From positions 668,304-732,303 of the forward strand of contig JAMWFC010000114.1 of NCBI GenBank assembly GCA_027475525.1: DNA of 64,000 bases, given 5' to 3'. Source of the DNA: Macrolepiota albuminosa. Its lineage: Eukaryota; Basidiomycota; Agaricomycetes; Agaricales; Agaricaceae. The first letter of the stretch is position 1. The number at the start of each line of letters is the position of its first letter. A program made the translations under genes and the position numbers. This document shows, in pieces, positions 36,363-64,000 of the stretch. The notes under the pieces are model-generated. The model saw only the letters and a list, made by a program, of their open reading frames with translations. It had not been told where the DNA came from and made no database searches.

Positions 36363-36462
36363 GGTAGTCTTTAGCGCACGTCGCCAAGCAGCATTATGAT
36401 TCGAAACCGAGCATAGCGCTATCATCAAGGATTACAACTTCCCAAGAGGAGCGCTAGTACTT

Positions 36463-37184: not shown

Positions 37185-37710
37185 TCAGTCACTCTCATCT
37201 TCCAGCGGCAAAGAGTCGTCAGAAATTGGCAGGGAGGAGTCGCGAAGGGGGAGAAGGTCGCCAGGAAGAATGTTGTTGGCAGCTTGCCAATCCATGGCGG
37301 CTTGGCAATCCCCCTGGTAATCACGCAGCACGCGAAGGCTACGACCCAGGTTGGAATAGCGCAATTGCAGCGCCATTAGCTGACCCCGAATGTGTTCTCG
37401 TTCCCGCTCCATTGAAGCCTCCATCGTTGCCGCTCTCCTGGAATAGCGCTCTAACATCTCACGAGGGTTGAGTGCTATGACTGGGTAGACGAGGTCTTGT
37501 CCCAGCCACTGGAAAGCGTCGCCAGTGACCGTCGGCTCCGGCTGAGGGGTCCAGGCAGGATTGACCCTGGCAATCACGGGGCGCCTAGGCTCCAGCCCGG
37601 CAACGTCTTCAGCTCCGGCTGAGGGGTCCAGGCAGGATTGACCCTGGCAATCACGGGGCGCCTAGGCTCCAGCCCGGCAACGTCTTCAGGATCTGACACC
37701 TCTCAGGGGG
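37185..37710 (-). CDS. Antisense ORF downstream of pol in element D
   Basis: Minus-strand frame reading VSDPEDVAGLEPRRPVIARV, WTPQPEPTVTGDAFQWLGQD, NPREMLERYSRR, then a probable coiled coil (MEASMEREREHIRGQLMALQ, LRYSNLGRSLRVLRDYQGD) and an acidic end, stop at 37185. A stop sits just upstream of VSDPED beside a CTGAG, so this may be the last exon of a spliced gene with upstream exons towards 37790. It contains a 77-bp duplication (37535/37612). It runs tail-to-tail with pol, as the antisense gene of element C does. No family recognised. Confidence 0.5.
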
Positions 37711-37790
37711 CGACGTTACTGTAAGGCGGTAGCCACCGCCACTTAGGATCCCCCCTGGTAACTCCAGCCGCTCCCTCCCCTTCTCCCGCT

Positions 37791-38086
37791 ACTAGCGTAG
37801 TCCGCTATGTGGCGTTGACCACATAGCTTATACTTACAGTAGTAGTTAATATTATATTATATTAATTATAATATAATATTATATTAATTATAATATAATA
37901 TTATTTACATTATTATATATATATACTTATACCAGCTGCTTACAATGCAGCTTATTTTTGTTCTGTACTACATAGTCAATAGACCGGACTGGTCTGATTC
38001 TGTGCAGTGTGAACATTAAGCTCTCACAATTCCTGTAACTTCGTTACATTTTTTTGAATCTGCCAGCTAGGAACTATTGCCTAGCA
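37791..38086 (+). repeat. 5' LTR of element A
   Basis: Matches the 5' LTR of B but is diverged (extra AT-rich repeat units near 37860-37920; the first two bases read AC rather than TG). Stem-loops shared with B, such as GCTAGG...CCTAGC, keep their stems. Confidence 0.75.
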
Positions 38087-38179
38087 CCCGGCGTCAGTCA
38101 CTGAGTTCATTGACAGAACTCTATCAGCTTCTCGAGCTTCTTGCACAGCCACACCTTGCAAATTTCAAACAAGGAATCG

Positions 38180-40808
38180 ATGAGTAATCCCATACCTGCA
38201 GTTTCCACTGATGGCAGGCGGAATGCCCACAACCTATAGGGAGATCCAGCAGACACCCAGGACGCGTCAGCGTCCAATGCGGGTCAGGCAAGACCCAAGG
38301 CTCGAGACCGGGGTCAGAGCACCGACCTGGCCGGGAATGAAAGTGAGGCCCGGAGAGCTGAAAGCTCACAGCAGGATGGTCAGCAACGTCTCCAGGACAA
38401 GATGCCAGGGGGACTAACTCCCCCAGTTACGCAGTTGCCAGGAGGACTGCAACGGTCTAGCCAATTAGCTTCAAAAGGGCTCCCTGAGGACGGCTGACAG
38501 TTAACAGGCACCTATGGCACCCCAGGAGACACCAAGTCGTCAGTATGGACTGGGAGAGCTCTCCCTCCAAGCCAGAGTAGTGGGACCAGGTGGTCCACAG
38601 CAGGCTCAATGCCTTCTAAAATAGCAGAAGCCCGCATAGAAGAGGTACCAGAGGAGGCTGCAAGGCCTGAAGTATCCTGCGCGGAAAACTGATTCCCATG
38701 CACACCAGCAGTGGAGGAAGTTCTGGAGGTTGTAGAGCTTCCCAAGGAGGTGATTGAGTTGTCAAGTGATGACGACACCGGAGCAGAGAAGCAGCAGCTG
38801 AAAACTGCGTACACCGTGCGCTTGCGGGTGTTCTGGGACTTGCACCCAGAGGTGATGAAATACACTACCCAAGGCTGAAAACCGCGTACACCGTGCGCTT
38901 GCGGGTGTTCTGGGACTTGCACCCAGAGGTGATGAAATACACTACCCAAGCACGACTTGAGCGCTACGCGTCAGCACATATAGTAGCACTTAGGTGACAA
39001 GGGCACAAAGTGCCCAATGTATTCAGTACAAAATATACTGATTTGATGATGAGAGTGCTCACTATTGAGCTGCAAATGTATGTGCAGTGGAAGGCCACAT
39101 GGCAATCGGGGGCCTCAACCCCCTGGAGCCACACGTCCGAGAAATGCTCAGCATGGCACAATCAAGACGTCGGAATCGAGCTAGTGGAGGCACTAGCACG
39201 GGCGCAGGAAGTGCCCGAAGCAAGACCGGTGAGTACTTTCTATACTCCAGCAGGACAAGGGTGGCATGAGGAGCCCCCACACATGCGTAACCAAGACCTT
39301 AGGACAGATATGTCAGGTCCGGATGGGCACGATAGTACCATGCTCAAGGTGGAGAGTGAGGCATCTGTGATGCCATGTGTGCCGATGGCAGAAACGTTGA
39401 GCGACAGAGTTGCGTATCAACGTATGCGCAATGGCGACCTCAGGACTAAGGGACAGTCCCTTATTGACGATCAGGGCATTGTATTTGAGGGCACTAAGCC
39501 CATTGACAAGATGCGTCGTCAATTTGTCACACAGGGTCAGGAGAATCAAGCTTCTCCAGTTCCAGGGCGGCGCAACGATCATGATCGAGGAGACTTCCTC
39601 GATTGAGATGGTGCCACGAGACGTGATGCCCCTGGTAACGGCCGGGATAATGGCCCTAGGTCGACTCCTCAAGACGAGGGCAATTATGCCCACAGTTGAG
39701 GAGGCTTGGGACGTCCTCTGCAGGGTGGACAAGGGAAGTCACTTCCCCATGCCGCTGATTTGGCGACTAGATCCCCAGGTCAGCGGGAGGCCATTCGAAT
39801 GCATCGTGAAGCCATGCACGATTGCCTGCATCGAGTAGTCGATGATGCCCTGGGTATCACCTTATGGTTACCAGACAGGGTGAAGCTGCGTAAAGCAGAC
39901 AGTAGGCATATTTGCGCCTATACAGGCGCGTCCAAGTTCAGCGACTTGGAGGATTGGGCAATGAATGTATGCACCCACCTCACCATGTGCTTATACGGAG
40001 GCGACCATATGGAACGAGAACGGATCTTTGTTCTTCCTGAGTTCTTGGCTGGAGAGGCCATGGGGTGGTTTCGACGGGCAGTACTGCACGTCAACCATGT
40101 CCAGTATGACTGGACGTTCAAAGGAGTCCTTACAGGACTGTATGATTGATTCATGCACCCCTCAACGCTCCAGGATGCGAGGCGGGATTTTCAGTCCGCC
40201 AAGTACACCGAGAAGTTGGGAGTGCAAGGATTCTATGATACCCTTAACGACCATGCCCAGAATATGGCAGTATACCCGGACGGGTATACAATGCTCAAAA
40301 CATTCTTGGATGGCATTCCAGCAGACATGCGCCACTATCTGATACGTGAGGATGGACTGTCCCCAGAAGTCAACAATGTGGAAGAGTTTATGGCATATGC
40401 CATCAGGTATGAGCAGTCCCTGAAGACTGCTAACCACTACAAACATTGGAGTGGACACAAAGGGGGAACCAGGCAACTACCGCCTGCTGGGACACCATCA
40501 CGGAGTCAGCATGTGGGGACCTTCTTGGCCAAAAAGGCTGATTTGGATCGTGACCGCAACATGCGGTTTGTGGTACGCAGAACCCCTGCTGCGAACTGAG
40601 GGCGGAGCCGCCCATGCCCAGAGCAGGCGCCGGATGGAGAACGTCCTAAACCAAGGCCGGACTTCAAGCTGGCCAACCCACCAGGTCAGACGGGGACTTG
40701 TTTCGCGTGTGGCCAACCAGGCCACTACGCTACCAACTGCCCCACAAAGCTGGGAGCCCCAAGGAAGGAGTATACACCCTGCGCCCACCTTCGAGCTGCA
40801 CATACTGC
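38180..40808 (+). pseudogene. Gag of element A (decayed)
   Basis: ATG at 38180 as in B. Later blocks include KTAYTVRLRVFWDLHPEVMK, NVFSTKYTDLMMRVLTIELQ, YTGASKFSDLEDWAMNVCTH, ERIFVLPEFLAGEAMGWFRR and a CCHC knuckle GTCFACGQPGHYATNCP-like segment near 40690. Stops at FLD-stop (39606), D-stop-FMHP (40149) and AAN-stop (40599) each read CGA in B. A 77-bp duplication with one mismatch lies at 38797-38950. Confidence 0.75.
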
Positions 40809-40809
40809 A

Positions 40810-41703
40810 TGTCAGGTTCCGCTGAATCGGGGGCTTTCCGGAAAAGCGACGCCCTTACGATGCGGACTTGATCTACGGATACTCGGGTGTCTGGGACTCC
40901 GGGGCTAGGACTCCGGGGTTCAAGACGAGGACAGGGGTAATCCCGGGAGAGGGGATTAGAGTCCGGGGGTTTTGGATGAGAGTGGCTGGGAGTTAGAGGG
41001 GGTCGAGTCGTGAACCGGAGGCTCTAAGACGAGACCAAGTTAGTAACTTAAGAATCGCGAAGTGCGTACCAAACTTATAGCACGCGGATACTGAGGCGTG
41101 CCAGTCGAAGCGTACCAAACAAGGCGTACCAGTCAAACAAGAGGGCACGCAATATCCAAGTAACAGTTATGCAATATCAAGACTAAGCGTACCAAACAAG
41201 GCGTACCAGTCAAACAAGAGGGCACGCAATATCCAAGTAACAGTTATGCAATATCAAGACTAGCGAATACAACAAGGAACTGTGCTATAAGTACTACGGG
41301 ACCCGGTCTCAGGGTTCCGGGGTGTCTGGGATGGGCTCCGGGGGTCATTGAGTAGCGGCAGGGGCTGTATACCGGGATCGCGCGTGTGGGGCGCGCGATC
41401 AATTGGCGCGGAGGGAGCTATGATGCGTGATGCGTGATAGCCGGAAATGGGCCGCGTGATCCGGTCGTTGATCGGGGCTGGTGGCGGCTGATGGCGGTCC
41501 TTGATGCGCGTGATGGCGGTGTCGGCGGTCGTGATGGCGGGTCGTTGATCGGGGCTGGTGGCGGCTGATGGCGGTCCTTGATGCGCGTGATGGCGGTGTC
41601 GGCGGTCGTGATGGCGTGGCATGTCCTGTGGGGTCGGAGGGAGGGTCCCGGGTGGTGTTCCGGGGGTGTCCCGGGGTGGGCCCGGAGGGGAGGGGTCGTG
41701 ACA
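40810..41703 (-). repeat. 3' LTR of element C
   Basis: Minus strand reads TGTCACGACCCC...AACCTGACA. It contains two 77-bp duplications (41108/41185 and 41464/41541), so the native length is about 740. A decayed solo relative lies at 23899-24696. Confidence 0.85.
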
Positions 41704-43914: not shown

Positions 43915-44259
43915 CTGTAGTATAGTGTACTCTATAAAAGAAAATGTATATACTTGGCTGTCCCGGGTCAGTAGGGGTAAGGGGGCGAAAGAAACCGAGA
44001 GAAACCGGAAAGAACATCTTGCCCAGACGCCGGGACACTACTATGAAAAGGTACTAAAAAGGAGTAAGGTCTAGAAAGGAAAAGGTAGAAAGTATACATG
44101 GGAGTTGAATCCCTACTGGGCCCAGAGGCGGGGGTTACGCCCACTACTGCCATCTGTGAGTCCTGCGCCCGGGAAGGTCGTTTGAATCCCTACTGGGCCC
44201 AGAGGCGGGGGTTACGCCCACTACTGCCATCTGTGAGTCCTGCGCCCGGGAAGGTCGTT
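43915..44259. other. Convergent spacer between antisense gene and pol of element C
   Basis: Presumed 3' ends of both transcription units. A 77-bp duplication lies at 44107-44260. No ORF supported. Confidence 0.45.
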
Positions 44260-47840: not shown

Positions 47841-49078
47841 CGCTTCCTAGAGCCCAGAGGTGCACGGCGGTTGAGGGGTGGTCTTCGGGCCCCGGGAAGG
47901 TCATGGTGAGCGTCCTCCAGTCGATGTCGGGGTTCGTGTCGCGCAGCCAGGGTAGTCCCAGCACCATCGGGGTCGATTCGTGAAGTCGCGTGACCAGGAA
48001 GTCGGAAGTGAACTCGTAGTTGTTGTCCAGGGTCACGCGTCCCGAGTGAGACCTTTGGATGGGGCCGGAGGAGGAGGGGGTGCCGTCGAGGCGCTGCAGG
48101 CGGAGGGGCTGGTCGAGGGAGTGTGAGACCTTTGGATGGGGCCGGAGGAGGAGGGGGTGCCGTCGAGGCGCTGCAGGCGGAGGGGCTGGTCGAGGGAGTT
48201 GTGGGGGAGGTCAAGGGCGTCGCTGATGAAAACCCCGGTGGCTCCGCTGTTGATAAGGGCCGATATTGGTCCCGGGGCGCTGTCCAGCCTGGCATTGATG
48301 ACGAAGGATCGGGACGAACGAGACTGGAGTCCGGGGGGTGGTGGGGGCTCGTCCGGGGGGTCCTTCGGGGTTGGATTTGAGGAGTGGGGGATGTCGAAGG
48401 GGAGTTGCTGGTCGTCGGGGGTCGGGTCCCGGGTCAGGCGAAGGGTGAGGTGTCGCCAATCGATGCGGGGGTTAGTGTCTCGGAGCCACGGGAGCCCTAG
48501 GACCAGGGGTGCGGAAGGGTGGAGTTTGGTTATCAACATCCGGAGGGTGTGAGTCTGTCCGTTGGCGAAGGTGACAGGACCAGGGGTGCGGAAGGGTGGA
48601 GTTTGGTTATCAACATCCGGAGGGTGTGAGTCTGTCCGTTGGCGAAGGTGACGGGCATACACACAAAATGAGTGATGTCCCCCGCCGTAAAGGCGTCGCC
48701 GTCGAAGAGGCAGAGCCGTACCGGGACCGGGAGTCGCTGGGCGGGTTCCGGGGCGAGGGTAGACCACGCTTTGTCGATGAAGTTGTCGGTGGCGCCGCTG
48801 TCGACGAGGGTGTTGAGGGGAGTTCCGGAGGGGGTGAGGCAGGTTTTGAGGAGGAGGGAGTGCAAAGAGTGGGAGGGTAGATAAGCCGTGAGGGTGTCCG
48901 GTATGAGTGTCATAGAGCGAAGATGTGAGACCGGGGCGGAGAAGACGTCGGGGTCGATTCTGCGATTTAGGGCGTCTTCCGGGTCTAAATCGCCGGGTCG
49001 TTTTCCGAATACTCGTAGGTGGCGTCCTCCCCTTCGAAGGTCCAGGTGGCACGTCCCATGACCTGTCGTTTGGGGCAC
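47841..49078 (-). CDS. Tandem retropepsin-like domains of element C
   Basis: Two homologous protease domains follow each other. First: [18 protein letters not shown] near 48790, later [20 protein letters not shown]. Second: [20 protein letters not shown] near 48250, later [20 protein letters not shown]. The catalytic Asp of the first is Asn in the second. The frame is open from 49078, overlapping the end of gag by about 90 bases in a different register, which would fit a -1 ribosomal frameshift. 77-bp duplications at 48046 and 48501 interrupt it. Confidence 0.75.
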
Positions 49079-51273
49079 TCGGAGATGAAATGATCTTTCT
49101 CACCACAGAGTATGCAGACACCCTCCCTTCTCCGTCGTTCCTGCACATCCGTTGGGACTTCGATCCAGGGTCGTCCCTTCTTTTGAAGCCGGTTGGCTCG
49201 GAGGGCCTCCTCGTCCCGTTCGTCGTCGAAGTCGAAGTCTTCCAGGGTCGTCCCTTCTTTTGAAGCCGGTTGGCTCGGAGGGCCTCCTCGTCCCGTTCGT
49301 CGTCGAAGTCGAAGTCTTCGGGTCTTCCGGGGTTCCTCGGGGCTTGGCACGTCGCCTGGGTCGTGGGCGGCCACGGCGGCGTTGAGTTGGGCCTGGGGCG
49401 GGCGCCGCTGCCGGGGTTAGCATTGGGCGGGCCGCGACTCACCGGGGGTCGGCCGCCAGGGAACGCGGGGGGACCGGGGTTCCGACCTTGGGGGTTGGGG
49501 GCTTCGCCGGAGGGCCAAGGGGGTCCTCCTCTAGGGTTCCAGGGGGGTCGGGAATTTGAATACTCGCTGCGGTCTTCCCAGTAGCGTTGGTCGATCTGCA
49601 TGACGAGGGCCTTGTATCCGTCGTAGGAGGGTTGTTTCGGGGCGAGTCGGAGGACGTCCTTGATACGTTGTGGGAGGGCGCGGCGGAGGGCGTACCGGAG
49701 GGCGCTGTAATTCCAACCTGTCTCGTAAGCTTCCTTTTCAAAACGTACGATGAAGGTTGTGAAACGTTCTTCAGAGCGCATCCGGAGGTTGAAGAGGTTG
49801 TCCTCGGCCTCGGCCACGGTGTCGTATATCCCGAATTTCCCGGAGAACTCGTCGACAAAGGCTTGCCAGCGAGCGAGTGCCGGGTTGTTGGGGTCGAACT
49901 GGATGAGGGCCGTGTAGTGATCGAAGGCGATCCCCTGGAGGTATGATGCGGCAAAGGCCACCCGGGAGCTGTCAACCTGAAACGTGAGCGGCTTTGCCTG
50001 GAACGTATTGAGACACTGAGTGAGGAAGGTACACCATTTTCGGGGGTCCTGGCCCGTGAAAGCGTTGGGCTTTTGGATGTCCAGTCGTCCTTCGCGGGCG
50101 AGGGCGTCGCGAGCGTTGTCCGGTCCGGCAGCGTTGCGGGGAGGGGGGCCAGCATTGTAATAGTAGTAATAGTGATTACCCCCCCCTCCTTGAGGAGGAA
50201 AAGCACCAAGTTGCGGGGAGGGGGGCCAGCATTGTAATAGTAGTAATAGTGATTACCCCCCCCTCCTTGAGGAGGAAAAGCACCAAGGGTGGGGCCCCAC
50301 CCGCCAGGAGGTCCCCCTCCGGGTGGCTCACCTGGGGGTCCACGCCCAGGAGGTCCGTTGTCCCAAGGGGGTTCGTTCCTGCCAGGAGGGGGCCCGGGTC
50401 TCCACGCAGGGAGTGGCGGGGGTGGAGGGCCTGGGGGTCGTCCTCGGGATTCAGCTGGGGGTGGCGGAGGCGGTCGGGGAGGGTTCGGCGGTGTCGGGTT
50501 GGGCGGAGGGGGGTTAGGTGCTGGGTCGGGTGCCGGGTTGCACGGGAGACGTTCAATCCGGGAGGGTCGGGCTTGCATCGGAGGTCGCGGGGGGTTCCGT
50601 AGGTCAAAGTGGGGCGGCAGATCGCGGTGGAAGTTGCGCTCCGGGAGGGCCGGGGCGGACGTGGGGGGTGGTGCTGGTGCCGGGGCGGGCACGGGCGCGG
50701 GACGTTGTTCGTTGTTGTCGCGTGTGAGCTTGTCAATGTAGCATAGCGTGTCGTCCGTACTAGGGGTGTCCACCCGGGCTCTACCGGGGTTCGTCGGGGG
50801 CGGGGGTCGGGCGTTGTCCATTCGTGGGAGGGGTTCCAGGGGTCTCTGGGGCTGCCCCCAGGTCTCGAAGGTACTAGGAACGGAGTTAGCCCTGCGGCGA
50901 GTTGACAAGCCTACCGTGCGAGCAGCGGGTTGATCGAAGAGGCCTCCAGTCAGGTTGAGGGACCGTAATATGGCTGAGGCGTTCTGCCGTTCTTCCCGTT
51001 GTCGTTGCTCCGGAGTGGGGACCGTGGGGGCTGCCGGGACTGCTGGGGCCGGTTCCGGGGGTTCCCGTCGAATGTGAATCGAGCGACCTGGGTCCGCGGG
51101 GTTGTTGAGGGGCCGAGGGGAGGGGGACGCGTGGACTTCGTCGAGCAGCTGCTGTAATTCTTCCCGGAGGATCGTATTGCGTTGAGGGGCCGAGGGGAGG
51201 GGGACGCGTGGACTTCGTCGAGCAGCTGCTGTAATTCTTCCCGGAGGATCGTATTGTGCCTATACTTTACCAT
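48985..51273 (-). CDS. Gag of element C
   Basis: ATG at 51273 (MVKYRHNTILREELQQLLDE). A long Pro-rich segment (APAPAPPPTSAPALPERNFH) precedes the capsid-like part: LDIQKPNAFTGQDPRKWCTF, FAASYLQGIAFDHYTALIQF, FVDEFSGKFGIYDTVAEAED, RSEERFTTFIVRFEKEAYET. A nucleocapsid knuckle [19 protein letters not shown] (C-x2-C-x4-H-x4-C) follows, and an acidic end stops at 48985. Four 77-bp duplications (49165, 50134, 51104, 51301) are the main reason the frame looks broken. Confidence 0.8.
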
Positions 51274-52132: not shown

Positions 52133-52403
52133 TGTAGCGTAGTCCGCTATGTGGCGTTGGCCACATAGCTTTACTTACTGTATATTAGTACATATTATAT
52201 TATATTTATTATAATATAATATTTATTTACATTCGTATATAATTAGTTACTCAGCTGCTTACAAAGCAGCTTATTTTGTTGTAAACTACATTGTCAATAG
52301 ACCGGTCTGGTCTGATTCAGTGTTGTGTGCACACTAAGCTCTCTCAAATTCGTAACTTCGTTACATTTTTTTGAATCCGCCAGCTAGGATCTATTGCCTA
52401 GCA
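52133..52403 (+). repeat. 5' LTR of element B
   Basis: Starts TGTAGCGTAGTCCGC. Identical to 63768-64000 up to 52365. The true right end is not fixed because the 3' copy is cut; CTAGCA at 52398-52403 is one candidate. It includes a perfect 9-bp hairpin (52147-52155 with 52160-52168) and others (GTAAC...GTTAC). Confidence 0.85.
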
Positions 52404-52496
52404 TCCGACGTCAGTCGTTGAGTTCGTTGACAGAACTCTATCAGCTTCTCGAGCTTCTTGCACAGCCACACCGTGCAAATTTCAAACAGGGGATTG
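52404..52496 (+). other. Leader of element B, primer-binding site not recognised
   Basis: No TGG complementary to a tRNA 3' CCA directly follows the likely LTR end. Two stem-loops (GAGTTC...GAACTC, TTGCAC...GTGCAA) lie before the gag ATG. A Tf1-like self-primer is one possibility. Confidence 0.35.
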
Positions 52497-55400
52497 ATGA
52501 GTAATCCCATACCTGCAGCGCCCACTGACGGCGGGCGAAATGCCCACGACCTATGGGGAGACCCAGCAGACACCCAGGACGCGTCTGCGTCCAATGCGGG
52601 TCAGGTAAGACCCAAGGCTCGAGACCGAGGTCAGAGTGCCGACCTGGCCGGGAATGAGAGCGAGGCCCGGAGAGCTGAAAGCTCACAGCAGGACGGCCCG
52701 CAACGCCTCCAAGACAAGATGCCCGGGGGATTAACGCCCCCAGTTACGCAGTTGCCAGGACACAGCAGGACGGCCCGCAACGCCTCCAAGACAAGATGCC
52801 CGGGGGATTAACGCCCCCAGTTACGCAGTTGCCAGGAGACCGCGACGGTCTAGCCGATTGGCTTCCAAAGGACCCCCGCAGGACGGCCGACAGTTAACCA
52901 GCGCCTATGGCGCCCCAGGAGACGCTGAGTCGTCAGTACGGACTGGGAGAACCCTCCCTGCGAACCGGAGCAGTGGGACCAGGCGGTCCACAGCGGGTCC
53001 AATGCCTTCTAAAGTAGCGGAAGCCCGCTTAGAAGAGGTACCGGAGGAGGCTGCAAGGCCTGAAGGATACCGCGCGGAAGATCGATTTCCGCGCACACCA
53101 GCAGTGGAGGAAGCTCAGGAGGTTGTAGAACTTCCAGAGGAGGTGATGGAGTCGTCAAGTGACGACGACGTCGGAGCAGAGGAACAGCGGCTGAAAACCG
53201 CGTACACCGTGCGCTTGCGGGTGTTCTGGGACTTGCACCCAGAGGTGATGAAATACACCACCCAAGCGCGACTCGAGCGCTACGCGTCAGCCCATATAGT
53301 AGCACTTAGGCGACAAGGGCACGAAGTGCCCAATGTATTCAGTACGAAATATACTGATTTAATGGTGAGAGTGCTCACTATGGAGCTGCAAATGTATGTG
53401 CAGCGTAAGGCCACACGACAATCGGGGGTCTCGACCCCCTGGAGCCACACGTCCGAAGAATGCTCGGCACGACGCAATCAAGACGTCGGAATCGAGCTAG
53501 TGGAGGCACTAGCACGGGCGCAAGAAGTGCCCGAAGTAAGACCGGTGAGTACTTTTTATACTCCAGCAGGACAAGGGTGGCGTGAGGAGCCCCCGCACAT
53601 GCGTAACCATGACCGTAGGACAGATATGTCAGGTCCGGATGGGCACGATAGCACTGTGCTCAAAGTGGAAAGCGAGGCATCCGTGATGCCGTTAGGACAG
53701 ATATGTCAGGTCCGGATGGGCACGATAGCACTGTGCTCAAAGTGGAAAGCGAGGCATCCGTGATGCCGTGTGCCCATGGCCGAAACGTTGAGCGACAGAG
53801 TCGCGTATCAACGTATGCGCAATGGCGACCTCAGGACTAAGGGACAGTCCCTTATAGACGATCAGGGCATCGTATTCGAGGGCACTAAGCCCATTGACGA
53901 GATGCGTCGTCAATTCGTCACGCAGGGTCAGGAGAATCAAGCTTCTCCAGGTCCAGGGCGGCGCAACGATCATGATCGAGGAGACTTCCTCGATCGAGAT
54001 GGCGCCACGAGACGTGATGTCCCTGGTAACGGCCGGGATGACGGCCCTAGGTCGATTCCTCGAGACTCGATCGAGATGGCGCCACGAGACGTGATGTCCC
54101 TGGTAACGGCCGGGATGACGGCCCTAGGTCGATTCCTCGAGACAGGGCAATTATGCCCACAGTCGAGGAGGCTCGGGACGTCCCCCGCAAGGTGGACGGG
54201 GAAAGTCACTTCCCCATGCCGCTGACTTGGCGACTAGATCCCCGGGTCAGCGGGAAGCCATCCGAATGCATCGTGAGGAAAGTCACTTCCCCATGCCGCT
54301 GACTTGGCGACTAGATCCCCGGGTCAGCGGGAAGCCATCCGAATGCATCGTGAGCCATGCACGATCGCCTGCATCGAGTAGTCGATGATGCCCTGGGCGT
54401 AACCTTACGGTTACCAGACGGAGTGAAGCTGCGTAAAGCAGACAGTAGGCACATTCGCGCCTATACAGGCGCGTCCAAGTTCAGCGACCTGGAAGATTGG
54501 GCGATGGATGTATGCACCCATCTTGCCATGTGCTTATACGGAGGTGACCGTATGGAACGAGAACGAATTTTCGTTCTGCCTGAGTTCTTGGCCGGAGAGG
54601 CCATGGGTTGGTTTCGACGGGCAGTACTGCACGTCAATCGTGTCCAATATGACTGGACGTTTAAAGGAGTCCTTACAGGACTGTACGATCGATTCGTACA
54701 CCCCTCAACGCTCCAGGATGCAAGGCGGGACTTCCAGTCCGCCAAGTACTTACAGGACTGTACGATCGATTCGTACACCCCTCAACGCTCCAGGATGCAA
54801 GGCGGGACTTCCAGTCCGCCAAGTACCGAGAAGTTGGGAGTACAAGGGTTCTATGATACCCTTAATGACCATGCCCAGAACATGGCAGTATACCCGGACG
54901 GGTATACAATGCTCGAAACGTTCTTGGATGGCATTCCAGCGGATATGCGCCGCTATTTGATACGTGAGGACGGCTTGTCCCCAGAAGTCAACGATGTGGA
55001 AGAATTCGTGGCATATGCCATCCGGTATGAGCAGTCTCTGAAGACTGCTAACCACTACGAACATCGGAGTGGACACAAAGGGGGATCCAGGCGACTACCG
55101 CCTGGTGGGACGCCCTCACGGGGTCAGCATGTGGGGACCTTCCTGGCCAAGAAGACCGATTTGGATCGTGACCGCAACACGCGGTTTGTTGTACGCAAGA
55201 CCCCTGTTGCGAACCGAGGGCGGAGCCGCCCACGCCCAGAGCGGGCGCTGGACGGAGAACGTCCTAAATCAAGGCCGGACTTCAAACCGGCCAACCCACC
55301 AGGTCAGTCGGGGACTTGTTTCGCGTGTGGCCAACCAGGCCACTACGCTACCAACTGCCCTGCGAAGCCAGGACCCCCGAGGAAGGGGTATACACCCCGC

Positions 55401-56186
55401 GCCCACCTTCGAGCTGCACATACTGCAGCCGCGAGTGGGAGTGACGGAGACGTATCTGCCGATTCTGAGGCGGAGAACCCCACAAACGACCAGGAGCCCC
55501 CAGAGGAGGCATCGGGCGCCGAGCCCGAGAGTGTGGTCGTGGAGGGGGAGGAGTACGTCACAGTCGACGTATATGACGACGTCTACAACAATGAGTATTA
55601 CAGTCGCGACAGCGACTCTGAGTGCCTAGCGGCGATGACGGATTGGCCGTCCGCAAATGACCCCGAACGGAATAACGTGGTTCGGATGAAGAAGGTGACC
55701 CTTCGTCGTGCAGAGGGCACTTTGCAGCGCCCTACATTGAAGCGAGCAGACAAGGAGTGCCTGGTCTCGTATGTGGACGTAGACGGCCACAAGGCATGGA
55801 CCCTATGGGACTCTGGGAGTACCACATCGGGCATAACGCCCCAGTTCGCCCATGTGTACGGAATATCCGTGCAGGAGTTGGATACGCCATTGGCGTTACA
55901 GCTGGGCACCGTAGGGAGCCGAGCCATGGTGCAGTACGGGACAAATGTGAATGTCCAAACGCCGGGCTCACGTAGCCGTGAATACATGGATGTAGCGAAC
56001 TTCGATCGCTACGATATGATACTGGGAACGCCATTCATGCGGCGTAACAAAGTCATACTAGACTTTGACCAATGTCAGGTACTGGTGAATGGGAAAGTGA
56101 TCCCAGCCGAACGAGCAACAGCAGACGACACTGATAATCGTCTGCGACGTCATCGCACTACGGAGAAACGCAAGGACTCTCCATGA
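52497..56186 (+). CDS. Gag-protease polyprotein of element B
   Basis: ATG at 52497 (MSNPIPAAPTDGGRN), conserved in element A. Blocks in order: acidic/disordered N-terminus; KTAYTVRLRVFWDLHPEVMK near 53195; YTGASKFSDLEDWAMDVCTH, ERIFVLPEFLAGEAMGWFRR and VQYDWTFKGVLTGLYDRFVH (capsid-like) near 54460-54700; AYAIRYEQSLKTANHYEHRS; CCHC knuckle CFACGQPGHYATNCP near 55320; acidic linker; protease KAWTLWDSGSTTSGITPQFA near 55800 and YDMILGTPFMRRN near 56010. The frame is broken by duplications at 52684, 53616, 53989, 54200 and 54672, several followed by loss of 1-2 bases relative to element A. Discounting those leaves one frame of roughly 1,100 codons to the TGA at 56184. Confidence 0.85.
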
Positions 56187-59100
56187 CTTGGCCGGCGCAG
56201 AGTGCCGACCGTGGAGGATGGGGAGGAGGAAGTGCAGGCTATGCCTGGACTAAGCGCAGACCACAACGTGGTAATGATGAGCGAGGAGGAGTATCAAGCC
56301 TCCAAGAGGAGCAACGAGCGAATAATCGCTCCCGAGATTCGAGGCGCAAGGCCTCCAGACAAACGCCATCGCAAGGCGAGACAACGGGAGGACTCAGTGG
56401 ACGTATGCCCACCTACGTCCTCACGAGTCAAGTTGGAAGACTTGAAAGACAGCACTCGAGAGGCGGAAGCCTCAGTAGAGGGGGACACACGGTCTCTATG
56501 GGAACGACCAGCTCCCCTACCGGAGTACGACTGGGCATACGACCCCCGAATGCCGCAAGAGTGGAACGAGCTGGTGGCAGCCACGTGTGCGCGAAATGCG
56601 CACCAGAGACGGATGACCGTCAAACCAGTGTATCGCCAGCCAGCCCCGGACGAGGTATCCGTAGCGTACTCGCTTGTACGTGAGGGAAGAAGCCTCGTGG
56701 CTTGTAAGGCAGCGGTAGCGGGTGCCCCGCTGAGACTACATATACCTGATGACAGTGTCAATCGGGTGCTCGCAATGCGAGAACAGTACGCGCCGCCGCC
56801 TCGGCCACCCTCAGAGACGGTGGAAGTACTTCCCCCGGTACGCATGAAGGGGAAGCAGAAGGCGACAAGCCTTCGTGAGGAAGATATCCCTCGGTTGCGT
56901 CAGCAATGGCAAGAAGAATTTGCCGACATGGTCAATGGGACCAAGGAGGAGCTCCCGCCGTGGCGGGAGGTGAACCATGAGATTAATCTCATAGACGAGA
57001 ACAAGCAGTATAAGTACCACTTGCCGCGCTGTCCGCGCGCCCTCCAGGAGCAACTACGCGATAAGACTAATCGCTACTTGAATGCTCAATGGTGGTCCCC
57101 ATGCACCACCGCTCAAGCTGCACCGTTATTGTGCATCCCGAAGAAGGATGGAACCCTTCGAACAGCTCTTGATGCGCGTCAGCGCAATGACAATACCATA
57201 AAGGATGTAACTCCTTTACCAGATCAAGAGGTGATCCGGGAAGACGTGGCTCGGGTCAGCGCAATGACAATACCATAAAGGATGTAACTCCTTTACCAGA
57301 TCAAGAGGTGATCCGGGAAGACGTGGCTCGGCGAAGTATCGCTCGAAGATTGACCTTACTGACGCTTACGAGCAGGTGCGCATTCGCACCGAGGACGTAC
57401 CCAAGACCGTATTTGCGTCGATCATGGGTACATTCACGAGCAATATAATGCAGATTGGAGACTGCAATGCTCCAGCAACTTTCCAGAGGCTAATGACCTC
57501 TATCTTCCGAGACGTAATAGGACGTTTCATGCACGTCTACTTAGATGACATATTCATCTACTCGGATACCATGGAGGAGCATGAGCAGCACCTCAGAGTC
57601 GTATTCGAACGACTGCGCAAGTACAAGTTGTACTTGAAGTGGAAAAAATGTGAGCTCTACGCTCAGAGTATAGACTGCCTAGGGCATGTCATAGACGAGC
57701 GGGGTATCCACCCTGATCAGGACAAGCTCGATCGTATTCGGGAGTGGCGCACGCCCCGAAACTACAATGACATCCAACGATTCGTTGGCCTTGTCAACTA
57801 CATATCGAGCTTCTTGCCCGATGTCACAGCCTATACTGGGCCACTTATGGCCATGACGCAGAACGGGTCACCGTTCAATTGGAGGCCGTTGCACCAGCGG
57901 TGCTTCGAGATGGTCAAACGGATCTGTACGAAGACTCCGGTGATTCGACCAATCGACCCTAGACGGGACGAGCCAATATGGCTCATTTGCGACGCGTCCA
58001 AGACAGGCGTCGGGGCCATGTACGGCCAGGGAAGCAGCTGGCAGACGTGCCGCCCAGCAGGGTTCATGTCGAAGAAGTTTACAACGGCCCAGCAAAACTA
58101 TGCAGTGCACGAGTTGGAGACTCTTGCCATACTCGAGGCTCTCCTCAAGTGGGAGGATAAGCTGATGGGATACCCCATCCACATCATAACGGACCACAAG
58201 GCCCTTGAGTTCTTTAAAACTCAGGTGAACTTGTCGCCGTGTCAGCGACGGTGGATAGACTACATGTCGAGATACCAGTTCGACATCACCTATGTTAAAG
58301 GTGAACTCAACAAAGTGGCAGACTGCTTGTCACGCTACTTTGAGAGTGATGTAGTCGGGGAGGCTCACGAGCCTCATGAGTATGTGCAGGCAGACTGCCG
58401 CATAGACCCTGATGGAGAGGATTTACCTCTCCACCGATACCAGGAGCTCAGGGAGCATGTCCTGGAAGTACGCGCTATGCGTGACGATGAACGGAGGCGA
58501 AGCACTCGCCTCAGAGAGCAGCGTGAAGAACGGGACGTAGCCGCCCAGTTGCTCAAGGAGCATGAAACCGTGGACCCAGCATCCACTAGGGAGCACGAGC
58601 GCCACGATGTACCCGTTACGCTTGCGGAGATGCTCGAAGGCGAATTGCCTTCATCCCAGCCTCCTAGCCTGGTCAATGACGACTTCCGGCAGGAGGTGGT
58701 GCAGGACTATGGCGATGATCCTCTCTTCGCCGAGATAATCGCCAATCCTGCAATGACGACTTCCGGCAGGAGGTGGTGCAGGACTATGGCGATGATCCTC
58801 TCTTCGCCGAGATAATCGCCAATCCTGCGACCATCCTCGGTTCAGGCATGAGCCTGGTGGACTCATCACGACGGAGAACCGTCAAGGGGTGGCAGTGGTA
58901 TGCCTCCCCCGTACGCGGGTCTTGGACCAGGCCCATGCCCTGGTGGGGCACTTTGGTGCCGCCCGGACATTGGGCTACATCCGGCCCGTACGCGGGTCTT
59001 GGACCAGGCCCATGCCCTGGTGGGGCACTTTGGTGCCGCCCGGACATTGGGCTACATCCGGCATGGTATTGGTGGCCACGTATGGCCCAAGAAGTGACTA

Positions 59101-60380
59101 AGTTTTGCGCGTCCTGCGCAGCGTGCCAGAGGGCAAAGTTGCCCCCTGGATCCCCTCTTGGGAAGCTACACCAGCTACCCGTGCCGGTGAAACCCTGGGA
59201 CTCAATTGGAATGGACTTCGTAGGTCCCTTTCCCGAGTCCAGAGGGTTCGATTACCTCTGGGTAGTCATATGTCGTATGACAAGCATGGTGCACCTCATA
59301 CCGGTGCGAACTACGCTGACGGCTAAGGAGCTGTCGTGGATCTACCTGAGGGAGATCGTTAGGCTGCATGGGCTGCCTAGCACCATTGTGAGCGATCGTG
59401 ACTCAAAGTTCACGTCTCAATGGTGGAGAGAACTCCACAAACTGCTAGGAGCGCGACTCCTCATGTCGACGTCCTTCCATCCTCAGACGGATGGGCAGAC
59501 AGAGCGGGTTAACCGCAGTATAGGTCAGATTTTGAGGGCAGTTGTTCGCCCTGACCAACGGGACTGGGTGGACTGGTGTCCACTCACTGAGTTCGCGATT
59601 AACGCGAGTATCTCGGAGACCACAGGGTATGCGCCCTTTGAACTCAACGGAGGGTACTTGCCCTCCATGCTGCACGAACTTCGTGCTGATACGGTAGCTC
59701 ACCGTGGAGTTGTCGAGTTCGCCAGGCAGGCCCTGGAGAACATCGCGGCGGCGCATGACGCCATCATAGAGGCGCGAGTCTTTCAGGCGAAGAACGCCAA
59801 TCACCGTAGGCGAACAGACCCGCCAATAGCTGTAGGAGCGTTGGTATACTTATCAACGCGTAATCTGAGGCTCCCAAAGGGACGGGCGAGTAAACTCTGC
59901 CCGAAATGGGTAGGCCCATACCGCGTCCTAGACGCAGAGCCAAGTACCTCCAACTACGTGTTGGAGCTGCCTCTGGCATTACAGGAACGACGCATCGTTC
60001 CTAAGTTTACGCAGAGCCAAGTACCTCCAACTACGTGTTGGAGCTGCCTCTGGCATTACAGGAACGACGCATCGTTCCTAAGTTTCCATGTGTCGCTGTT
60101 GCGACCTTATAGCGCGTCTGATGATGCGCTGTTCCCTAACAGGGCGACCCCGGGCCCCTATGATTTTGGGGCTCGAGACGATGACGAATGGTTCGTCGAG
60201 TGCATAATTGGGCACCGGTGGACTGAGCGTAACACGCTCGAGTTTGAGGTACGATGGTCCCTGGGGGACACAACATGGGAGCCACACTCCCATTGCTCCA
60301 AGCTAGCGGCACTTGACCGTTATTTGGAGTTGAAGGGCGTTAAGCGCCCACATCAATTAAGTAAGCGTGCCGGCGCTTAA
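56187..60380 (+). CDS. Pol polyprotein of element B: RT, RNase H, integrase, chromodomain
   Basis: Same frame as gag-protease, after one TGA. RT: LLCIPKKDGTLRTALDARQR, KIDLTDAYEQVRIRTEDVPK, MHVYLDDIFIYSD (YLDD) near 57540. RNase H: WLICDASKTGVGAMYGQGSS, HELETLAILEALLKWEDKLM, IITDHKALEFF. Integrase: zinc part HALVGHFGAARTLGYIR and CASCAACQRAK, catalytic residues in GMDFVGPFPESRG, TIVSDRDSKFTSQWW and [19 protein letters not shown]. Then LCPKWVGPYRVLDAEPS and FHVSLLRPYS. The chromodomain is DDEWFVECIIGHRWTERN, FEVRWSLGDTTWEPHSHC near 60180-60310. Duplications at 57178, 58674, 58908 and 59932 interrupt the frame. Confidence 0.9.
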
Positions 60381-60445
60381 TTTGATCGGCAGTGCCGATC
60401 GCGGCTTGGCTGAGTTGGTCAGCAGCTGTGGCTGAAACACGTCTT

Positions 60446-60473
60446 AAAAGGCGAAATTTCTTTTTCGCCTTTT
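60446..60473 (+). terminator. Perfect 11-bp stem-loop followed by T-tract between pol and ORF3
   Basis: AAAAGGCGAAA (60446-60456), six-base loop, TTTCGCCTTTT (60463-60473), then more T. It looks like an intrinsic terminator, though fungal RNA polymerase II does not use these; it may be a structural RNA element. A second perfect hairpin, GATCGGCA...TGCCGATC, lies near 60382-60398. Confidence 0.45.
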
Positions 60474-60483
60474 TTCCCCAACC

Positions 60484-63400
60484 ATGGACAGCATGCCCGT
60501 GGACATAAGTGACCAGCAGCAGCAGCAGCTACAGCAGCAGCAATTTGAGAGTACGCCGTCGGTCTTACCGTCGGCTGAAGGGGGGGGCAGATGGCTCCCC
60601 CGCTGACCCAAAATGCGCCCCAGTGGGGACAATCGCAACAGGCTGTGGGCTTCCCACAGCAGCAGCAACAACCAGCGGCGGGCTACCCGCCGCAGCAGCC
60701 GGTGATCAGTGGCTATCCGCCACTTCAAACCATGCAGGGCAACTTCATGCCCCAGAACGCACCTGTGGGCGGCTATCAGCCCCAACAACCAGCACCGGGC
60801 GCTTATGCGCCACATCACACCGAGGGCCAATTCCAGCAACAGGCCTACGGGGGGCTAGTCAGCCCCCAAGCAGCGCCGGCATGGAGGCAGCTTGCCCCTG
60901 TACCGGCAACAGGGCAACTGGGGACACATCCTTTTCCCCAGTTTACCGCCCCGGCGCACTACCCTGGGATGGGTGGTGTGCCCGTAATGATGCCGTACCC
61001 CCCGGCTTGGATGGGGGCTTGGGGCGCAATGCCCCAGTACAGCGACTCGCATGAGTCGCAAGCCAAGGGAGGCCGGTCGATTTCCCTGTCGACCACAGTA
61101 CCAACCGATAATCTAGAGGGACGCCAAGCATCCCTCGTGCAGGCCACCGCGGCCATTGAGAGAGCAGAAACTCTCAATACAGAACGAAGCGTCGGATCAT
61201 TGTCCGATGCGCCGACGGAGAGCCTGGCCAAGCTCTCCTTGCTACAGCGGCTGGAAATGCCGCACCAATCCGAGCCCAGCTCGGAAGAAGAGTCGCGTCC
61301 TCGACGCGACAAAGGAAAAGCACGGGCTGTCGAGCCCACTCACAGCCAGGACTTAGTCCTGGCTACCCTTCTCCAACGTCTTGGAGATAACGGGTACGAT
61401 GTACCCGCAGAGTCGTCATTCCTCCGCGATGCGGAGGCAGTCGTCCTCATCTGCCGGATGATGGACAACATGGATCATATGCGCGCTCAGCGCAAAACTG
61501 ATCTCCTTGCCATTTCGGCCGCTCGTAAGCGGCAGACTACACCCCCGAGTCGGGACACCGACTCCAGCAAAAGGGCGCGTCGGCAAGGAGTGGAGGACGC
61601 GCCCTCCCGCTCGATTAAGTCGAGCGTTGCTGCCCCCGGCCGGGAGGCCGGTCTAGGACGGGACATCCTCCCTTATGAAGATGTTCCTGCTCCAGCCGCC
61701 CCCCGGCTTATCCAGCGCCTCGCCAGCGGCGCGTCTGAGGTCGCGTCTTCGCGACCAGTATCCGTGGTATCCACCACGCACTCTGGGGAGCAGAGTTCCA
61801 GGGGTGTGAGCACACGCCCCACTGAGGCCAAGGCCTCACAACCCCGAAAGGATCGTCGGGGTAAGCAACCGGACGTGCGCGCCTACGTCAACGTGCACTT
61901 CCCTGAGGATGCCCCGAAAGGGGCCCCAGGGGCTAACATCCCCTTTTTACCCGCTATACTGGTAGAGGGCCCGCCAGCCCGACTCCCGCGGTGTGTGTGG
62001 GCAATGGACCCACGATCTGAGAAGTCGGAGCCGGAGAGGCTGCCTTCCCCTCCCTCCGACAACGATTGGTATGAGGAGCCTGAAGAGGCTCGTATGGAAT
62101 CCCCAGTGCCGCATGAGACGGCGGCACAGCGTATGGCGCGCGAACGGCGCAACAGCAATCGACGAGCCAAGATGGAGCGTCGGGCGCAGAACAGCGCCAA
62201 ACGAGGGGCCGCCCTCCTTGAGGACGAAACCGGGCGCATCCCTGATGCGCTCGGTGTGGTGATCTACCGTGATCACACTATTGAGCGCCAAAACTCATTC
62301 TTTGGCGCGGGGTTGGCTCCCCAATTCTATTGGTCGCCAAGGACCAATACCATCTTCGTCGGGCAAGAAGCCCGCGCAGCCAGGTCCTTCGAGGACGACA
62401 AACCGGGCAACGCCGCCGCGACGCCCCACAACAGTAAGGTGTACCAAGTTGCACCTCACGGGTTTCCCCGCAGTCCTCGAGAAGTCCGCAGACTTCACGC
62501 ACTGGTCAACAACCAGTTTACGCCGCTTCGGCAGCGTCAGTTGGGCTACCTCTTGCTCAACGAATTCAAGCGGGTGGCGCTCAACTGCCACCCTACGGCC
62601 CGAGACAGAGCTATGTCTCATTTACTCGACGAGGTCGAGTATAGGACTATCGCGGTACCCTTCGTGAGTCCAGAGGAGCGGGAGAGCTTCCCGCGAATGA
62701 TTGTGCCGTCGCGGCTCTATCGCCGCAAAGAGGGAGGGAAGATTGCCTTCGTCGGCCTTACCCCCCCTGATCCAAAGCAGCCATTTGCTTTGGACTACCT
62801 GGGCTCATACGCCCTCCTCTATGGACGTCCTGGGACGTCCAATGTGTGGACCGGTCTGGCCATGGACCGAGCCATGCGCATTCATTGGCGCAGCCTCTTT
62901 GGGTTTGCGCTTGTACGCGCCCTCAGCGCCAGCCGCCCCTCTAAGGCCACGGTACACAAGTACCTGGCCTACGTCTTCGCCAGGCCAGGCCTCTATAAAG
63001 AGGCCGTGGCCGAGTACGAGGCGGCCACGGGGCGAGTCTTTGAGCCCATCCACGCCGACGACCCTACCTTCGAGGTTTGGGCTGTGGACATTCCGGAAGC
63101 GTCAGCTTCCGTGTTCTCCACTTCGGACGTGTTACGCGTCCTTCTCCACAATCAAATCCCGGTCAGCTGGGCTGACCACGCGTACACTTATGGGGTCACC
63201 TACTTGGCCCACCTATTCTTCAGCGACAGCCGGCTCTACAACGAGGCGGCTGCTATCGACGACGAGAGGCTACAACGCCTCGATCACTACGGTACACCCC
63301 AGTCCATCCCTCAGTGGGATGGGTGGCGCGAGGGCACCATCGGCGATCGTCAACGCCTGATGCTCCAGCAGCAGGACAGTCGTCGTGCATACGACGACGC

Positions 63401-63722
63401 GCTCGCCAAGGGGATGTACCTCTCTATCGGGCAAGACATTCATGCCCGCGAAATCTGGACGCGCCAGTACCCGTCCGACACCGGGGATCTGCCTGATCCC
63501 CAACCAACCGTCTCGGAGTCGACCATCGACCCCAATCTCACACTGTCCCCCCTCCGGGACTATGACGATTCCCTGCCTGTGGCAGGGCCTTCGGGTACTT
63601 CTTACGCGCCCGCACCCGAGGATGAACTCCTCGACTACGACATGGACGACGCGACTGCCGATCCATTCCGGGAGCCTGGGGACTCTCCCATTGCCCCCGT
63701 CCCAGACTTACCGACGGCATGA
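60484..63722 (+). CDS. ORF3 of element B: unknown protein of about 1,040-1,080 residues
   Basis: Uninterrupted from ATG 60591 to TGA 63720-63722 (1,043 codons). An upstream ATG at 60484 opens MDSMPVDISDQQQQQLQQQQ and stops after a run of eight G at 60580-60587; one more G would join it in frame, so the natural start may be 60484. N-terminus is Gln/Pro/Gly-rich (QQQQQPAAGYPPQQP, prion-like). The middle is charged and disordered (SSEEESRPRRDKGKARAVEP). A basic segment RMARERRNSNRRAKMERRAQ precedes a folded-looking C-terminal region (EVRRLHALVNNQFTPLRQRQ, YLLLNEFKRVALNCHPTARD, WRSLFGFALVRALSASRPSK, HKYLAYVFARPGLYKEAVAE). An acidic tail ends it. No signal peptide or membrane segment, so not an envelope protein; no enzyme motif seen. 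No 77-bp duplication falls in it. Confidence 0.75.
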
Positions 63723-63767
63723 CCGTCGTATTATCTCGAGACCGTAGCTCGGTCTGATTGGGGGGTG
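63723..63767 (+). other. Short spacer with purine tract before the 3' LTR of element B
   Basis: GATTGGGGGGTG directly precedes the LTR start TGTAGCG at 63768, a likely polypurine tract. Confidence 0.5.
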
Positions 63768-64000
63768 TGTAGCGTAGTCCGCTATGTGGCGTTGGCCACA
63801 TAGCTTTACTTACTGTATATTAGTACATATTATATTATATTTATTATAATATAATATTTATTTACATTCGTATATAATTAGTTACTCAGCTGCTTACAAA
63901 GCAGCTTATTTTGTTGTAAACTACATTGTCAATAGACCGGTCTGGTCTGATTCAGTGTTGTGTGCACACTAAGCTCTCTCAAATTCGTAACTTCGTTACA
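63768..64000 (+). repeat. 3' LTR of element B, cut by window end
   Basis: Identical by eye to 52133-52365 over all 233 visible bases. Confidence 0.9.

What the first reader, a model, noticed from the sequence alone, without database searches (positions are those of the whole stretch)
52133..64000. Element B is tiled with short perfect stem-loops from LTR to LTR
Seen directly: perfect inverted repeats with 5-9 bp stems and 3-9 base loops occur about every 30-45 bases through LTR, leader, gag, pol, spacer and ORF3. Examples: 52147-52168 (9 bp), 54888-54907 (8 bp), 55992-56012 (7 bp), 56122-56144 (7 bp), 61391-61407 (7 bp), 61421-61437 (7 bp), 62234-62250 (7 bp), 62772-62793 (8 bp). In ORF3 alone I counted by eye about 30 stems of 6 bp or more; a uniform random sequence of that length would give about five. 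Sampled stretches of the App1-like gene and of element D do not show this. Several A/B differences sit in loops or keep pairing as G-U. Inference: either selection for RNA structure (packaging, reverse transcription, RNA stability) or an RT that turns imperfect hairpins into perfect ones by template switching. I know of no described LTR element with this property.
Basis: partly seen in the sequence, partly recalled or inferred. Interest (0 to 1): 0.9.

Follow-up and report, generated by a model that had tools for sequence, protein, structure and literature searches.

The report
Retrotransposon tiled with selected hairpins
A mobile element that copies itself through RNA, in what is likely a mushroom-type fungus, is filled almost end to end with tiny perfect hairpins whose paired letters, at third codon positions, change about four times less than other such positions in the copying lineage, so the folding is likely kept by natural selection, perhaps because the element's single-stranded DNA copy would need it.

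Summary
Element B (52133-64000), a Ty3/gypsy LTR retrotransposon with an extra 1043-aa ORF3, holds 152 perfect stems of 6 bp or more (loops 3-9) against 18.5 in dinucleotide shuffles; each of six ORFs tested exceeds all 200 codon-keeping shuffles. Host DNA in the window and the other elements tested lack this. Four sister groups in the same genome (about 70% nt identity) have it too; where tested, at other positions and with their own stem and loop sizes.

In a tree of 21 B copies, third codon positions in stems change 11/347 times on internal branches, against 183/1371 outside, 16/125 in loops and 41/303 in chance stems. Terminal (mostly post-insertion) CpG decay hits stems and non-stems alike. 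So stems are likely kept by purifying selection while the element replicates. In B, changes that leave G-U are purged as much as those that leave A-C. That fits DNA hairpins better than RNA structure, so I commit to selection on folding of single-stranded cDNA (inferred, moderate confidence); RNA-level selection is the main rival. Template-switch repair is not supported. Nine literature searches listed no LTR element with this property.

The parts
52133..52500 (+). 5' LTR region (starts TGTAGCG; 52133-52365 identical to the 3' LTR piece; exact LTR end not located)
   Evidence: the repeat finder D7, 233 of 233 bases identical; 8 stems >=6 bp vs 0.62 by shuffle
53002..53763 (+). open frame in the gag region, no Pfam match
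   Evidence: 10 stems vs codon-shuffle mean 2.9, max 9
54357..56186 (+). gag-protease frame: CCHC knuckle and retroviral aspartyl protease
   Evidence: PF00098, PF08284; 21 stems vs codon-shuffle mean 4.6, max 12
56241..57278 (+). pol frame upstream of the RT match, no Pfam match; ends inside a 77-base duplication
   Evidence: 10 stems vs mean 3.6, max 8
57424..58815 (+). reverse transcriptase and RNase H
   Evidence: PF00078, PF17917, PF17919; 14 stems vs mean 4.2, max 10
58848..60380 (+). integrase with SH3-like and weak chromodomain match
   Evidence: PF00665, PF17921, PF24626, PF00385 below its cut-off; 17 stems vs mean 4.6, max 10
60591..63722 (+). ORF3, 1043 aa, no Pfam family; homolog in sister family L067 and in Termitomyces
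   Evidence: 51 stems vs codon-shuffle mean 8.8, max 18
63768..64000 (+). 3' LTR, cut by the window end
52146..52169 (.). example: 10-bp perfect stem, loop 4, in the LTR
61344..61437 (.). example: four perfect stems in 94 bases of ORF3 (9, 7, 7 and 7 bp)
37701..40510 (+). element A, partial copy of the same family; also hairpin-rich
   Evidence: 84-94% identical blocks; 38 stems vs 4.4 by shuffle

Best explanation
This is a Ty3/gypsy LTR retrotransposon family that carries perfect short hairpins through nearly its whole length, and because stem letters at third codon positions change about four times less than other such positions in its replicating lineage, the hairpins are likely kept by natural selection, most likely on folding of the single-stranded cDNA made during reverse transcription. 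Shown: the excess; its presence in four sister groups, in the three tested at other positions, with differing stem and loop sizes; conservation of stems but not loops on internal branches, including at third codon positions; no such difference for CpG decay on terminal branches; no tolerance of G-U over A-C among changes in B. Inferred: that purifying selection (not lower mutation) causes the conservation; that the folding molecule is DNA (minus-strand and/or plus-strand cDNA in the particle) rather than RNA; that the benefit is compaction or protection of an exposed single strand. New stems would arise by ordinary, mostly synonymous, substitutions and be lost and replaced as families diverge.
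For: Excess over shuffles in every ORF tested and in the LTR; loop-length peak. All nine sister-family loci fetched are enriched over long-loop controls: L059 24 vs 5.2, L060 14 vs 3.5, L061 32 vs 4.1, L062 24 vs 5.3, L063 32 vs 5.2, L064 16 vs 2.2, L065 12 vs 2.2, L066 9 vs 2.5, L067 40 vs 6.6. L039-L058 (20 B copies) have 11.6-14.4 stems/kb, L001-L008 (B 5' parts with flanks) 7.6-10.3, 30 other gypsy loci 0.6-3.0. Third-position internal changes: arms 11/347, outside 183/1371, loops 16/125, chance stems 41/303; internal:terminal 11:84 vs 183:447, OR 0.32, p 1.7e-4. 0 of 1000 in-frame shifts reach the observed value, also for ORF3 alone and RT+INT alone. Replicate on LTR+leader+gag, 9 copies: 13:85 vs 192:457, OR 0.36, p 6e-4. 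CpG transitions at third positions: terminal 57/347 in arms and 223/1371 outside, internal 3 and 43, OR 0.27, p 0.024. Transitions in stems leaving G-U versus A-C: internal 9:9 and 4:6, terminal 100:99 and 27:28. Standing 7-pair stems over six sequences: perfect x14.9, one inner G-U x3.1, one A-C x3.8. PMC6993869 (abstract and passages): GU pairs coevolve in ssRNA viruses and ncRNA, GT pairs are near neutral in ssDNA viruses.
Against: Folding z is more negative on the sense strand in ORF3 (difference -0.58, s.e. 0.15) and L058 (-0.25, s.e. 0.10), not in gag-pol (+0.06, s.e. 0.09): a hint of RNA. The CpG contrast is weaker over all codon positions (11:172 vs 67:560, p 0.064) and absent at positions 1-2 (p 0.66); non-CpG third positions alone give p 0.098. 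ORF3 alone, all codon positions, does not differ from chance stems (OR 0.92), and INT alone is not significant (p 0.43). Terminal third-position changes in arms are also somewhat low (0.242 vs shifted mean 0.309; RT+INT 0.164 vs 0.328), which lower mutation could explain, though the gap vanishes without the four most diverged copies (0.195 vs 0.193). Stems are not shared between families. Healing of mismatches is not clearly favoured: 12 of 27 vs 13 of 39 in controls, CpG changes left out. Loops peak at 6-8 in the L061 family, not the 4-5 that I recall for DNA. No long-lived ssDNA was shown.
Confidence: 0.42

Rival explanations
1. Selection acts on the RNA: a genome-wide ordered RNA structure in the element's transcript (packaging by Gag, RNA stability or shielding from RNA silencing).
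For: Stems are conserved and loops free; folding z about -2 in B; sense strand favoured in ORF3 and L058; hairpin energy lower on the sense strand in 149 of 268 unequal cases; G-U above A-C in L061 7-pair stems, 18 vs 7.
Against: In B, G-U is treated like A-C both in standing stems and in changes, and in the pooled set too (14 vs 13; 93 vs 108); no GNRA or UNCG loop preference (1 GNRA and 0 UNCG of 39 tetraloops in B).
Confidence: 0.35
2. Paired bases mutate less because a single-strand-specific mutagen or RT error acts on unpaired bases; hairpins pile up without selection.
For: At non-CpG sites loops change more than outside on internal and terminal branches (ratios 1.56 and 1.51), arms less on both (0.27 and 0.58).
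Against: CpG transitions, which hit stems normally on terminal branches (0.86 vs 0.81 per site), are still depleted in arms on internal branches at third positions (3:57 vs 43:223, p 0.024; over all positions p 0.064); terminal third-position rates are equal without the four diverged copies while internal rates stay low (0.029 vs 0.075).
Confidence: 0.15
3. Reverse transcriptase perfects imperfect hairpins by snap-back template switching, copying one arm from the other.
For: Perfect stems are far more enriched than one-mismatch stems of any type; sister families show imperfect palindromes at the same places.
Against: Derived changes lie in both arms: 12 of 75 multi-change stems are one-armed, 17 expected; arm change rates are not raised between families (0.23-0.27 vs 0.25-0.26); internal double Watson-Crick changes are 0 against 22 single changes in the joint tree, 1 in the ORF3 tree and 1 in the union set.
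Confidence: 0.06
4. Chance, composition, codon bias or assembly artefact.
For: 77-base duplications look like artefacts and double some stems.
Against: Codon- and dinucleotide-keeping shuffles never reach the observed counts in six ORFs; 20 other copies and four sister groups share the property.
Confidence: 0.01

Closest known systems
Ty3/gypsy LTR retrotransposons (chromovirus-like, Agaricomycete)
   Same: LTRs, gag with CCHC, protease-RT-RNase H-integrase order, weak chromodomain match; RT 78% identical to a Hypsizygus and 60% to a Leucocoprinus protein
   Different: whole element tiled with perfect hairpins; additional ORF3
Genome-scale ordered RNA structure (GORS) of RNA viruses
   Same: structure spread over the whole coding genome; synonymous sites constrained (recalled; only search listings seen)
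   Different: here in B strictly Watson-Crick, G-U not favoured, nearly strand-symmetric except in ORF3
Pervasive functional secondary structure in ssDNA virus genomes (Muhire et al. 2014, seen only as a reference in PMC6993869)
   Same: dispersed structures under selection; GT near neutral in ssDNA viruses (PMC6993869 passages)
   Different: those are viruses with an ssDNA genome; here the single-stranded DNA would be a replication intermediate
Ty1 and Ty3 genomic RNA structure (SHAPE studies, PMC11381356, passages read)
   Same: stable structure dispersed over the RNA; up to 30% in stable, highly structured regions
   Different: the passages seen report no tiling by perfect short hairpins

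Membership tests
Ty3/gypsy LTR retrotransposon | LTRs flanking the internal region | tested here: met
   233 of 233 bases identical at 52133 and 63768; 3' copy cut by window end
Ty3/gypsy LTR retrotransposon | domain order PR-RT-RNase H-integrase | tested here: met
Ty3/gypsy LTR retrotransposon | primer-binding site and target-site duplication | tested here: inconclusive
   LTR end not located; the one extra fetch gave no readable letters; primer-binding site not searched
Chromovirus | integrase C-terminal chromodomain | tested here: inconclusive
   PF00385 at E 0.00055, 20.2 bits, under the 25.1 cut-off; L067 21.5 bits
Genome-scale ordered RNA structure | sense RNA more stable than sequence-shuffled controls along the genome | tested here: met
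   mean z -2.01 (gag-pol) and -2.79 (ORF3); LINE D, the 33422 gypsy copy, L024 and L014 lie at -0.14 to +0.31; the host control did not run (time limit)
Genome-scale ordered RNA structure | RNA-type pairing: G-U kept as a pair | tested here: not met
   B; exception L061 at 7 pairs
Template-switch (quasi-palindrome) hairpin repair | one-armed clustered changes and concerted double changes | tested here: not met
ssDNA-type functional secondary structure | stems conserved, GT not tolerated | tested here: met
   in B; yardstick from PMC6993869; L061 at 7 pairs is an exception
ssDNA-type functional secondary structure | the single-stranded DNA form exists and folds in the particle | not testable with these tools
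   needs chemical probing

The most novel reading that the evidence does not exclude
A retroelement clade whose entire cDNA is under selection to fold as DNA: dispersed, positionally free, strictly Watson-Crick hairpins whose stem and loop size is a trait of each family (stems 7-9 with loops 6-8 in one, 5-8 with 4-5 in B, 4-6 with 3-4 in another), a whole-genome structural code laid over its genes.
Probability: 0.33. Interest if true: 0.9.

Novelty: new variant of a known kind. Interest (0 to 1): 0.78.

Why it matters
Selection on nucleic-acid folding along a whole retrotransposon would mean that its synonymous sites are far from neutral, which would bias dating and Ka/Ks work on such elements, and it would give a natural experiment for what a replicating single strand needs. 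Sister families with different hairpin sizes, and the many decayed copies (a built-in neutral control), make the RNA-versus-DNA question testable by sequence alone once more copies are read.

Tried and rejected
Chance and codon bias: rejected by shuffles. RNA tetraloops: no preference; a shared loop motif: none seen by eye in the list. Conserved structure between families: rejected for L059, L060 and L061 groups, retention equals shifted controls; third-position identity between families is 0.39-0.45, so turnover is not surprising. A first reading of arm variability (union of stems over copies) was open to ascertainment bias; replaced by root-ascertained stems with chance-stem controls. In one search codon positions in ORF3 were off by one because a column had been dropped; found, corrected. 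Relatives outside this genome: no match in viral contigs, 12 pattern matches but 0 confirmed in genome contigs. ORF3: no homolog with the whole protein among the 7993 candidates scored; 2 with residues 540-975 among 7994; no Pfam family. Regular spacing: only in the L061 family (L061 CV 0.75, L067 0.73, random 0.97), not in B or L059. One search hit its time limit before the host control. Of the nine literature searches seven named retrotransposons and two viruses; only passages of PMC11381356 and PMC6993869 were read.
Full report
What it is. The window is a piece of contig C105 of an unnamed assembly of 100,137,612 bases in 129 contigs. Named protein relatives of the RT come from Hypsizygus, Leucocoprinus, Pleurotus, Trametes, Peniophora and Pisolithus and of ORF3 from Termitomyces, so the host is likely a mushroom-forming basidiomycete (inference). 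Element B is a Ty3/gypsy LTR element by its domains with an extra ORF3 that has no Pfam family. The family is large: 93 RT matches were listed when 92 of 4418 candidates were scored.

The observation. Perfect stems of 6 bp or more with loops of 3-9 bases number 152 in B against 18.5 in dinucleotide shuffles, and each of six ORFs exceeds all 200 shuffles that keep codons and dinucleotides. The excess peaks at loops of 4-5 and falls to background by about 12. By exact stem length: 5 bp 152 vs 49, 6 bp 79 vs 15.5, 7 bp 41 vs 4.2, 8 bp 19 vs 1.3, against stems with loops of 30-129. The first 30 kb of the window (56 vs 51) and ORFs of element D and of the gypsy copy at 33422 (0, 0 and 0 vs 2.0, 3.1 and 2.5) do not show it; the leader of B is not clearly enriched.

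Who has it. The 20 B loci L039-L058 have 11.6-14.4 stems per kb and L001-L008 (5' parts with flanks; L001 is the window's own) 7.6-10.3; 30 loci of other gypsy copies (31-40% aa identity to B in the parts that matched) have 0.6-3.0. Four sister groups in the same genome are all enriched, nine of nine loci; three of them were in the RT tree and form a supported clade with B. Their third codon positions are far from B's (identity 0.39-0.45) and their stems lie at other places: stem pairs of one family are kept in another no more often than shifted controls (L066 not tested). In the sister families the same place often holds an imperfect palindrome. Stem and loop sizes differ: L061/L067 stems 7-9 with loops 6-8, B stems 5-8 with loops 4-5, L059 stems 4-6 with loops 3-4. 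The ORF3 of the L061 family is a 32% identical homolog (E 3.6e-90), and the stretch that holds it is dense in stems, 40 vs 6.6.

Selection test. Terminal branches of the copy tree hold mostly decay after insertion (CpG transitions dominate); internal branches hold changes that passed through replication. Stems were found on the inferred root state only, and chance stems with loops of 20-100 served as control. In RT+INT+ORF3 of 21 copies (columns with fewer than 15 letters dropped) 78 stems were found; internal changes in arms were 25 against 66.1 expected from outside sites of the same base class (0.38), chance stems 1.04, loops 1.23. At third codon positions the internal rates were 0.032 in arms, 0.134 outside, 0.128 in loops, 0.135 in chance stems. 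In-frame shifts of the stems never reached the observed value in 1000 trials for all data, for stems >=5 bp, for ORF3 alone, for RT+INT alone, without the four most diverged copies and without the window; for stems >=7 bp 1 of 1000 did. The 5' part (LTR, leader, gag; 9 copies) gave the same result: 13:85 internal to terminal in arms, 192:457 outside, p 6e-4. Against: ORF3 alone over all codon positions is not distinct from chance stems (OR 0.92; against outside OR 0.59, p 0.023), and INT alone is not significant. In sister copies arms vary less than chance-stem arms (25/614 vs 95/1296, p 0.006; the controls are inflated by ascertainment), while loops vary 23/286.

Selection or mutation. CpG transitions on terminal branches hit arms as often as outside sites (third positions 57/347 and 223/1371), so this mutation does not care about pairing; yet on internal branches they are rare in arms (3 vs 43; odds ratio 0.27, p 0.024). 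Purifying selection explains this, protection from mutation does not. The evidence is thin: over all codon positions the CpG contrast has p 0.064, at positions 1-2 it is absent (p 0.66), and non-CpG third positions alone give p 0.098. The lower terminal non-CpG rate in arms (0.58) can come from the part of those branches before insertion, but also from a mutational effect, which stays open.

DNA or RNA. In B, changes in stems that leave G-U and those that leave A-C are equally frequent on terminal branches (100:99 and 27:28) and equally purged on internal ones (9:9 and 4:6). Standing stems of 7 pairs in six sequences: one inner G-U 3.1-fold enriched, one A-C 3.8-fold, other mismatches 2.3-fold, perfect 14.9-fold; by sequence G-U and A-C differ both ways (B 37 vs 56, L059 5 vs 14, L060 22 vs 18, L061 18 vs 7, L067 10 vs 10, L066 1 vs 3). 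PMC6993869 reports that GU pairs are selected in RNA viruses and ncRNA while GT pairs are near neutral in ssDNA viruses (abstract and passages). This favours a DNA hairpin, hence cDNA. Hints for RNA are the sense-strand excess of folding energy in ORF3 and L058 and the L061 stems.

Mechanism, inferred part. During reverse transcription RNase H would expose long single-stranded cDNA; dense local hairpins would keep it compact and away from nucleases, deaminases or wrong annealing. None of this is shown.

Template switching. A snap-back RT should convert one arm at a time and turn about half of the arm mutations into double changes. Derived changes are spread over both arms (12 of 75 one-armed, 17 expected) and internal double Watson-Crick changes number 0 against 22 single ones in the joint tree (1 each in the ORF3 tree and), so this is disfavoured.

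Novelty. Nine literature searches listed no LTR element tiled with selected short hairpins; the library holds open-licence papers only, and I read passages of two. I rate it a new variant of a known kind.

Noticed in passing
window, e.g. 36224-36377, 41463-41616, 42021-42174, 42365-42518, 43475-43628, 44105-44258, 45534-45687, 53989-54142, 54668-54821: Many tandem duplications of exactly 77 bases, those listed 99-100% identical, inside and outside element B: likely an overlap of k=77 left in by the assembler, which splits frames in the window. At one such place in B, 11 of 12 copies that span it carry the stretch once by their BLAST coordinates.
   Followed up: partly
window 46603-49781 and 33422-35449: ORFs of a LINE-like element and of another gypsy element have no perfect stem of 6 bp at all (0 of about 7.7 expected in three ORFs): possibly avoidance of hairpins.
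   Followed up: no
L034: One locus of the otherwise hairpin-poor gypsy copies has 3.0 stems per kb, 2.4 of them >=7 bp; not explained.
   Followed up: no
L067:292-3369 and P0121, P0122: ORF3 is a protein of unknown fold with a variable Pro/Gln-rich N-terminal part and a better conserved part from roughly residue 545 to 960, present in Termitomyces (39% and 34% identity).
   Followed up: partly
B-family copies, one search list: In-frame stops in copies are mostly TGA and terminal changes are dominated by CpG transitions: decay by methylation-type C to T change.
   Followed up: partly
hairpin loops of B copies: Loops change about 1.5 times more than outside sites at non-CpG positions on internal and terminal branches, though not at third codon positions on internal branches.
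   Followed up: partly
window 42001-44000: GC-rich stretch (69% GC) with slightly more stems than the shuffle mean (11 vs 6.4, maximum 13); identity unknown.
   Followed up: no
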